A DNA stretch of 64,000 nucleotides, taken from Gemmatimonadaceae bacterium. GTDB lineage: Bacteria > Gemmatimonadota > Gemmatimonadetes > Gemmatimonadales > Gemmatimonadaceae. Below are positions 54,503 to 55,069 of this stretch, in pieces. The stretch spans positions 1 through 64,000 of the forward strand of contig JAUQWM010000037.1 in assembly GCA_030835125.1 (NCBI GenBank), in the 5' to 3' direction. The notes below the pieces were generated by a model. That model made no database searches. It saw only the letters and a program-made list of their open reading frames with translations, and was not told the origin of the DNA. The position numbers and the translations under genes were made by a program. Numbering within the stretch: the stretch's first letter is position 1; each line of letters opens with the position of its first letter.

Positions 54503-54534
54503 AGAGTTGAGAGTTGAGAGTTGAGAGTTGAGAG
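54503..54534. repeat. left arm, (AGAGTTG)4AGAG
   Basis: Four perfect heptamers and a partial unit start five bases after the homogentisate dioxygenase stop codon. The arm is the exact reverse complement of 55038-55069. Confidence 0.95.
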
Positions 54535-54605
54535 CGTGCGGGATTCTGATTCTGGTGCGTTGTCAGGGTGACGCACCGGTGACGGGGCGGTATTACCGTC
54601 GCTGC

Positions 54606-55010
54606 ATGACAACTGGGACGCGACTTCCCGGGGGCGGCACGATCCGGAGCTATCGCGAGCTGATCGTCTGGCGGAAGGCCATGGCTCTCGCTCGCATCGT
54701 CTATCGGACGACCGCAGACCTGCCGGCCTCCGAACGATTCGGGATCGGCAGCCAGCTACGGCGGGCCGCGGTCTCGGTGCCTTCGAACATCGCCGAGGGC
54801 CAGGGTCGCATGTCGAACGGCGATTTCGTTCGCTTCCTGGCCATCGCCAGAGGCTCGCTGCTCGAGACGGAGACGCTGCTGCTACTCTGCGTTGACCTCG
54901 AGTTCCTGGCGCCGGGATCAACGAGTGATGCCATGAGCCTGGCCGACGAAGTAAGCCGCATGCTGGCCGTCATGATCCGGAAGCTCGGGCGACGACGCGG
55001 CCCGAATTGA
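54606..55010 (+). CDS. four-helix-bundle protein, 23S rRNA intervening-sequence type
   Basis: A 134-residue helical protein. RSYRELIVWRKAMALARIVYRTT, then FGIGSQLRRAAVSVPSNIAEGQGR, then a segment with FLAIARGSLLETETLL are the signature segments of the four-helix-bundle (TIGR02436-like, IVS/bAvd-related) family. These proteins are encoded in intervening sequences of 23S rRNA and as free-standing genes; a basic pentameric barrel that binds nucleic acid is known for relatives. Function is unresolved. The ATG at 54606 has no clear ribosome-binding site. It is on the same strand as homogentisate dioxygenase and opposite to the next gene. Confidence 0.85.
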   Translation: MTTGTRLPGGGTIRSYRELIVWRKAMALARIVYRTTADLPASERFGIGSQLRRAAVSVPSNIAEGQGRMSNGDFVRFLAIARGSLLETETLLLLCVDLEFLAPGSTSDAMSLADEVSRMLAVMIRKLGRRRGPN

Positions 55011-55037
55011 CCCAGCAGTGCCTTATATTTCTGTCCG

Positions 55038-55069
55038 CTCTCAACTCTCAACTCTCAACTCTCAACTCT
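55038..55069. repeat. right arm, CTCT(CAACTCT)4
   Basis: Exact reverse complement of 54503-54534. It overlaps the 3' end of the minus-strand FAD-binding gene: the stop codon (55055-55057) and the last four residues, RVES, are read from array units. Confidence 0.95.

What the first reader, a model, noticed from the sequence alone, without database searches (positions are those of the whole stretch)
54503..55069. Free-standing IVS-like element: four-helix-bundle gene bounded by a perfect 32-bp inverted repeat made of heptamers
Seen: (AGAGTTG)4AGAG at 54503-54534 and its exact reverse complement at 55038-55069, with one gene of the 23S rRNA intervening-sequence (four-helix-bundle) family between them. 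Known: IVSs in 23S rRNA of several bacteria carry this gene family, and their complementary ends form a stem processed by RNase III. Inference: this is the same kind of unit outside rRNA. In RNA the arms would form a 32-bp duplex, allowing excision of the small ORF from a longer transcript or masking of its translation. The arms are also the same period-7 sequence type seen at other junctions, which ties the element to a wider repeat system.
Basis: partly seen in the sequence, partly recalled or inferred. Interest (0 to 1): 0.8.

Follow-up and report, generated by a model that had tools for sequence, protein, structure and literature searches.

The report
Mobile gene with its own heptamer repeats
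A small gene of unknown function, known until now mainly from inserts in bacterial ribosomal RNA, turns out to sit between mirror-image arrays of a 7-letter repeat in most bacteria tested, each version of the gene having its own repeat word scattered through the same genome, which points to a so far undescribed kind of mobile DNA element.

Summary
It is not an isolated oddity. In 115 of 149 IVP loci (Gemmatimonadota and over 15 other phyla) the gene lies between inverted arrays, mostly of 7-nt units. The word differs between loci but matches between the two arms; mismatched-locus controls match in about 2% or less. Whole elements, arms included, are present or absent at orthologous sites in congeners. 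Orphan arrays of the same words are dispersed: 71% of orphans in this genome match one of its own IVP arms, against 4% for foreign arms. Four IVP-free relatives show none. When an orthologous IVP's word changes between species, the genome-wide repeats change too (AGGCATC 127 vs 0; AGGGTWC 0 vs 38). Arm mismatches show no RNA-strand bias, so the RNase III idea is not supported. Best reading: a REPIN/RAYT-like pairing of a trans-acting protein with cognate repeats, but with an Avd-fold protein and no known transposase. How arrays spread is unknown. 23S rRNA intervening sequences may be landed copies; the Coxiella one carries heptamers.

The parts
54503..54534 (+). 5' arm, (AGAGTTG)4AGAG
54535..54605 (+). 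spacer between 5' arm and IVP start codon
54606..55010 (+). IVP gene, 134 aa, PF05635/TIGR02436, Avd-like four-helix bundle
55038..55069 (-). 3' arm, exact reverse complement of the 5' arm; its last 15 nt are the end of the FAD/NAD-binding gene
16847..16890 (+). orphan array (CAGAGTG)n, word of the IVP arms at L002
41551..41623 (+). orphan array (GAGGTCA)n, word of the IVP arms at L004
58801..58837 (+). orphan array (GCAGATY)n, word type of the IVP arms at L008 and L002
53301..54497 (+). neighbour: homogentisate-dioxygenase-like cupin gene (not part of the element)
55055..56452 (-). neighbour: FAD/NAD(P)-binding gene, PF13454 (not part of the element)

Best explanation
The unit is a small mobile element (about 0.57 kb here; median 0.53 kb) made of one IVP gene between two inverted arrays of a heptamer that is specific to that gene. 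Shown: the arms are part of the element, match within a locus, change in concert and travel with the gene; free arrays of the same word are dispersed in the same genome and follow the gene's word between species; sampled genomes without the gene lack them. Inferred: the IVP protein (Avd-like fold) recognises its cognate heptamer and acts in trans on DNA that carries it, probably on the G-rich strand when single-stranded or in a hairpin, so that arrays and the gene-bearing copy are copied to new places and kept alike by host replication or repair enzymes. It works like RAYTs and REPINs (one distinct helper gene per family of short repeats) but with an unrelated protein and no recognised transposase or reverse transcriptase. 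The step that moves the arrays is not known.
For: Matched inverted arms in 28/32 loci of the order (direct 3/32, mismatched loci 5/256) and 53/78 loci of other phyla (direct 8/78, mismatched 5/624); 115/149 in all. Presence/absence of whole elements and of a gene-less hairpin at orthologous sites of one genus. Arms change together at orthologous sites. IVP identity predicts the arm word for non-syntenic pairs (0.334 vs 0.163 permuted, none of 5000 as high). 71% of 103 orphan arrays match the genome's own IVP arms vs 4% for foreign arms. Zero period-7 arrays in 4 x 100 kb of IVP-free relatives vs 40-145 per Mb in six IVP-bearing ones. Species-specific switch of arm word and genome-wide repeats; same link in Hymenobacter. 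IVP dN/dS at most 0.20. No RVT_1 and no Y1_Tnp in five IVP-rich genomes.
Against: No transposition, binding or catalysis has been observed. A PF05635 protein has no known enzymatic activity. About a quarter of loci lack clear arms by this score, and 29% of orphan arrays here (67% of 18 in G036) have no matching IVP. Orphan loops are unrelated and many arrays are single, so the orphans are not simple deletion derivatives of the gene-bearing element. Gain and loss are not polarised by a tree, and no target-site duplication could be read.
Confidence: 0.66

Rival explanations
1. RNA-level IVS: the arms form a 32-bp RNA duplex that RNase III cuts, freeing or silencing the small ORF, as in 23S rRNA intervening sequences.
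For: The region folds strongly as RNA with the arms paired (z -6.1); the Coxiella IVS with the same gene family has a 28-bp stem cut by RNase III in vitro (PMC4990558).
Against: Arm mismatches show no excess of sense-strand wobble pairs (132 vs 140, p 0.67). No rRNA or other RNA family near the element. Arrays of the same words are mostly gene-less and many are single. It would not explain the dispersed cognate repeats. Cutting may still occur as a by-product.
Confidence: 0.1
2. The heptamer hairpins are independent repeats, and the IVP gene is a passenger that merely inserts into their loops.
For: Gene-less hairpins are common and outnumber IVP loci; rRNA IVSs also sit in stem regions.
Against: IVP-free relatives have no arrays. 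Congener empty sites lack the arms too. IVP sequence and arm word co-vary across phyla, and orphan words follow the IVP of each species.
Confidence: 0.14
3. A reverse transcriptase or a Y1 (HUH) transposase encoded elsewhere moves the element; IVP is only an Avd-like accessory.
For: The protein has the fold of Avd, the partner of the DGR reverse transcriptase (PMC10053308). REP repeats are linked to Y1 enzymes (PMC3116915, PMC8266576).
Against: Five IVP-rich genomes of 96% completeness or more have neither family at the sensitivity used. A diverged or unlisted enzyme cannot be excluded.
Confidence: 0.1

Closest known systems
REPINs and RAYTs (REP-associated tyrosine transposases)
   Same: Distinct single-copy helper genes, each flanked by and cognate to its own family of short dispersed inverted repeats; hairpin doublets and singlets (PMC3116915).
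   Different: The protein is a PF05635 four-helix bundle, not a Y1 transposase; repeats are tandem heptamer arrays, not a palindrome with a fixed head; orphan loops are unrelated.
23S rRNA intervening sequences (IVS) encoding S23p/PF05635, e.g. Coxiella burnetii
   Same: Same gene family between complementary ends; the Coxiella IVS has tandem heptamers (GACAGAT) upstream of the ORF (PMC4990558).
   Different: Not in an rRNA gene; arms follow a locus-specific word that is dispersed in the genome; no RNA-strand bias in the arms.
Dispersed heptameric repeats: GGGAATC in Xanthomonas, GGGGA(C/T)T in Nostoc, TAACTGA in Beggiatoaceae
   Same: 7-nt units in intergenic arrays; in Xanthomonas often as convergent inverted pairs (PMC4692102; PMC4679880). 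The solved IVP 2GSC is XCC0516 of Xanthomonas campestris.
   Different: Described as quadruplex or regulatory repeats; no gene was linked to them in those texts. Only 15 of 115 arms here have a G4 motif.
Avd of diversity-generating retroelements
   Same: Same fold (4DWL, TM 0.72 on the query, 16% identity).
   Different: No reverse transcriptase in this genome and no DGR here.

Membership tests
PF05635 / TIGR02436 protein family | profile score over the curated cut-off | tested here: met
   123.6 vs 33.8 bits; 116.9 vs 24 bits
PF05635 / TIGR02436 protein family | four-helix bundle of the 2GSC/2RLD fold | tested here: met
   model pLDDT 91; 2GSC TM 0.82 on the query, rmsd 0.8
PF05635 / TIGR02436 protein family | oligomeric ring as in the solved relatives (five chains deposited for 2GSC and for 2RLD) | not testable with these tools
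   only a monomer was modelled
23S rRNA intervening sequence | lies inside an rRNA gene | tested here: not met
   no Rfam match in window 48000-62000
23S rRNA intervening sequence | complementary ends | tested here: met
23S rRNA intervening sequence | excised from RNA by RNase III | not testable with these tools
   needs RNA end mapping; arm mismatches give no support
REPIN/RAYT | helper gene flanked by its own dispersed inverted repeats | tested here: met
REPIN/RAYT | helper is a Y1 (HUH) tyrosine transposase | tested here: not met
   IVP is a four-helix bundle; no Y1_Tnp in this genome
Insertion sequence or MITE of a known transposase | element encodes a transposase of a known family | tested here: not met
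   only a PF05635 gene between the arms
Insertion sequence or MITE of a known transposase | target-site duplication | tested here: inconclusive
   congener junctions too diverged
Diversity-generating retroelement | reverse transcriptase with template and variable repeats | tested here: not met
   no RVT_1 in G000; template and variable repeats not searched for

The most novel reading that the evidence does not exclude
IVP proteins are a new class of sequence-specific DNA-mobilising factor: each spreads and homogenises its own heptamer arrays through a genome without a known transposase or reverse transcriptase, and many bacterial heptamer repeat families and the 23S rRNA intervening sequences are its products.
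Probability: 0.45. Interest if true: 0.95.

Novelty: categorically new. Interest (0 to 1): 0.88.

Why it matters
Very many bacterial genes annotated "four helix bundle protein" have no function; heptameric repeats in Xanthomonas, cyanobacteria and Beggiatoaceae have no known maker; and the origin of 23S rRNA intervening sequences has been open since 1990, with transposition remnants proposed but not tested (PMC4990558). One gene-plus-cognate-repeat system would join all three and makes the question directly testable by binding and deletion experiments. It would also be a class of mobile element found in many phyla whose only protein belongs to no known transposase family.

Tried and rejected
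Arms as chance: rejected by shuffles and mismatched-locus controls. Arm-poor loci being inside rRNA: rejected; window element not in rRNA. RNA-level constraint: not supported. RT or Y1 in trans: absent from five IVP-rich genomes. Orphan hairpins as copies of one hairpin: rejected, loops unrelated. G-quadruplex as the general reason for the words: only 15 of 115 arms have a G4 motif. Exact empty site of the window element: not obtained; relatives' hmgA-like genes mostly lack the element but have other neighbours; exact empty sites were found for other copies instead. A Xanthomonas survey centred on locus L172 was not possible. Literature searches for the link between this gene and heptamer repeats found none, in open-access papers only.

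Full report
OBSERVATION. The arms at 54503-54534 and 55038-55069 are perfect reverse complements (32 bp, 34 with two inner bases) and the only such sequences in the window (0 expected). They frame a 134-aa IVP gene (PF05635 E 4.9e-36; TIGR02436). The host is a Gemmatimonadaceae bacterium by inference: the nearest genome-contig hit L110, the same contig as sister genome G001, is titled so, and relative G022 has the contig length that I remember for Gemmatimonas aurantiaca T-27.

A RULE, NOT A CURIOSITY. The genome holds eight IVP genes, each with inverted repeats around it and a different word: AGAGTTG, GCAGAGT, AGGCATC, GAGGTCN, GTGAATC, GCAGATT and, more degenerate or of another period, two others. 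I aligned the upstream flank with the reverse complement of the downstream flank. In the order, 28 of 32 loci pass the threshold, against 3 in direct orientation and 5 of 256 pairs of flanks from different loci. In loci of more than 15 phyla fetched with an IVP alignment, 53 of 78 pass, against 8 direct and 5 of 624 mismatched. Overall 115 of 149 pass; the period is 7 or 14 in 71 of them and 8 or 16 in 11. The words share a core, yAGknrT (information 3.77 bits; maximum with shuffled words 3.0). The G-richer strand reads inward in 97 of 111 IVP loci and 47 of 52 tight hairpins.

MOBILITY. A 10.5-kb region of G036 with two IVP elements was compared with six species of its genus. Element 1 is absent from G266, G159, G051 and G277, present in G276 and decayed in G211. 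Element 2 is absent from G266, G276 and G277, present in G159 and decayed in G051. The missing piece includes the arms, at convergent gene ends. An 85-bp heptamer hairpin without a gene behaves the same way. Gain and loss were not polarised by a tree, and the junctions are too diverged to read target duplications. At the window site the sister species G001 has the orthologous IVP (70% identity) with (GGAGTTG)n arms and in the opposite orientation to the hmgA-like gene.

CONCERTED ARMS. At orthologous sites the arms stay matched within a locus (0.54-1.0; one degenerate locus 0.47), while similarity between species is mostly 0.12-0.3. Mismatches between arms do not favour sense-RNA wobble pairs (132 vs 140, p 0.67). 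This argues for DNA-level pairing or homogenisation rather than RNA folding.

GENE AND WORD BELONG TOGETHER. Non-syntenic IVP pairs of at least 60% identity share arm words far above permutation (0.334 vs 0.163; highest of 5000 permutations 0.249), including pairs from different phyla. In an 822-kb sample of this genome there are 118 period-7 arrays and none of periods 4, 5, 8, 10 or 11. Of 103 away from IVP genes, 71% match one of the genome's own eight IVP arms; sets of eight foreign arms match 4% on average and 35% at most in 2000 draws. In G036 the figure is lower: 33% of 18 arrays against 4.5% expected. Four IVP-free relatives show no period-7 array in 100 kb each; six IVP-bearing genomes show 40-145 per Mb. 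The IVP orthologues of L003 and L084 have AGGCATC arms here and AGGGTWC arms in G001; genome-wide matches are 127 and 0 for AGGCATC, 0 and 38 for AGGGTWC. For the window's element, AGAGTTG gives 129 and 20, GGAGTTG 3 and 14. These are overlapping matches, and G001 is only 72% complete. In Bacteroidota the Hymenobacter word occurs 106 and 54 times in the two genomes whose IVP arms carry it, 11 times in one other genome and 0 in twelve.

THE PROTEIN. The model (pLDDT 91) matches 2GSC (XCC0516), 2RLD and, at low identity, Avd 4DWL. IVP genes are under purifying selection (dN/dS at most 0.20). Invariant polar residues (Q50, S57, N61, E64, S84) may be functional, but no catalytic role is known. Genomes G000, G005, G006, G016 and G019, with 8 to 11 IVPs, have no RVT_1 and no Y1_Tnp.

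MECHANISM. Shown: matched inverted arms, presence/absence of the whole unit in congeners, cognate dispersed repeats, and co-variation of gene, arms and repeats. Inferred: the IVP recognises its word on DNA and drives its spread and homogenisation in trans with host enzymes. Orphan loops are unrelated and many arrays are single, so the spreading unit is probably the array itself; fold-back copying of a G-rich single strand would explain the fixed polarity of the hairpins. This last step is a guess.

COMPARISON. It works like REPIN/RAYT (PMC3116915) but fails the Y1 test, and it is IVS-like but fails the rRNA test. The Coxiella IVS carries tandem heptamers upstream of its ORF, and IVSs have long been suspected to be transposition remnants (PMC4990558). 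Xanthomonas GGGAATC repeats, often in convergent pairs (PMC4692102), and Beggiatoaceae TAACTGA repeats (PMC4679880) look like the dispersed half of the same system; neither text mentions the gene. No paper found makes the link, but only open-access texts were searched, so the novelty rating carries that limit.

Noticed in passing
G000 contigs C3, C12, C26, C27, C31, C48, C49, C52, C54, C55, C57, C68 (ends): Many contigs of this assembly begin or end inside an AGAGTTG array, so some arrays or elements probably exist as longer near-identical copies that broke the assembly.
   Followed up: no
window 54503-55069 versus L015/L039 (G001): The orthologous IVP lies in opposite orientation relative to the hmgA-like gene in the sister species, as expected from inversion between the arms, and the FAD/NAD-binding gene is absent there.
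   Followed up: partly
L068 3754-3840 (G036): A different multi-copy palindromic element of about 80 bp (no heptamers) is also present or absent at this site among congeners.
   Followed up: no
L120 3986-4031 and 4559-4604: Two Acido-Lenti-1 RNA matches (RF01687) lie near an IVP gene of a KSB1 MAG.
   Followed up: no
G000 sample, words AGGGTCG, TTGCGCY and CGGGAAT: Frequent orphan array words for which no cognate IVP gene was found in this genome.
   Followed up: no
L003 (G000:C58:6152-6785): The inverted repeat runs about 15 bp beyond the heptamers into the ends of both convergent neighbour genes, as if copied by template switching.
   Followed up: no
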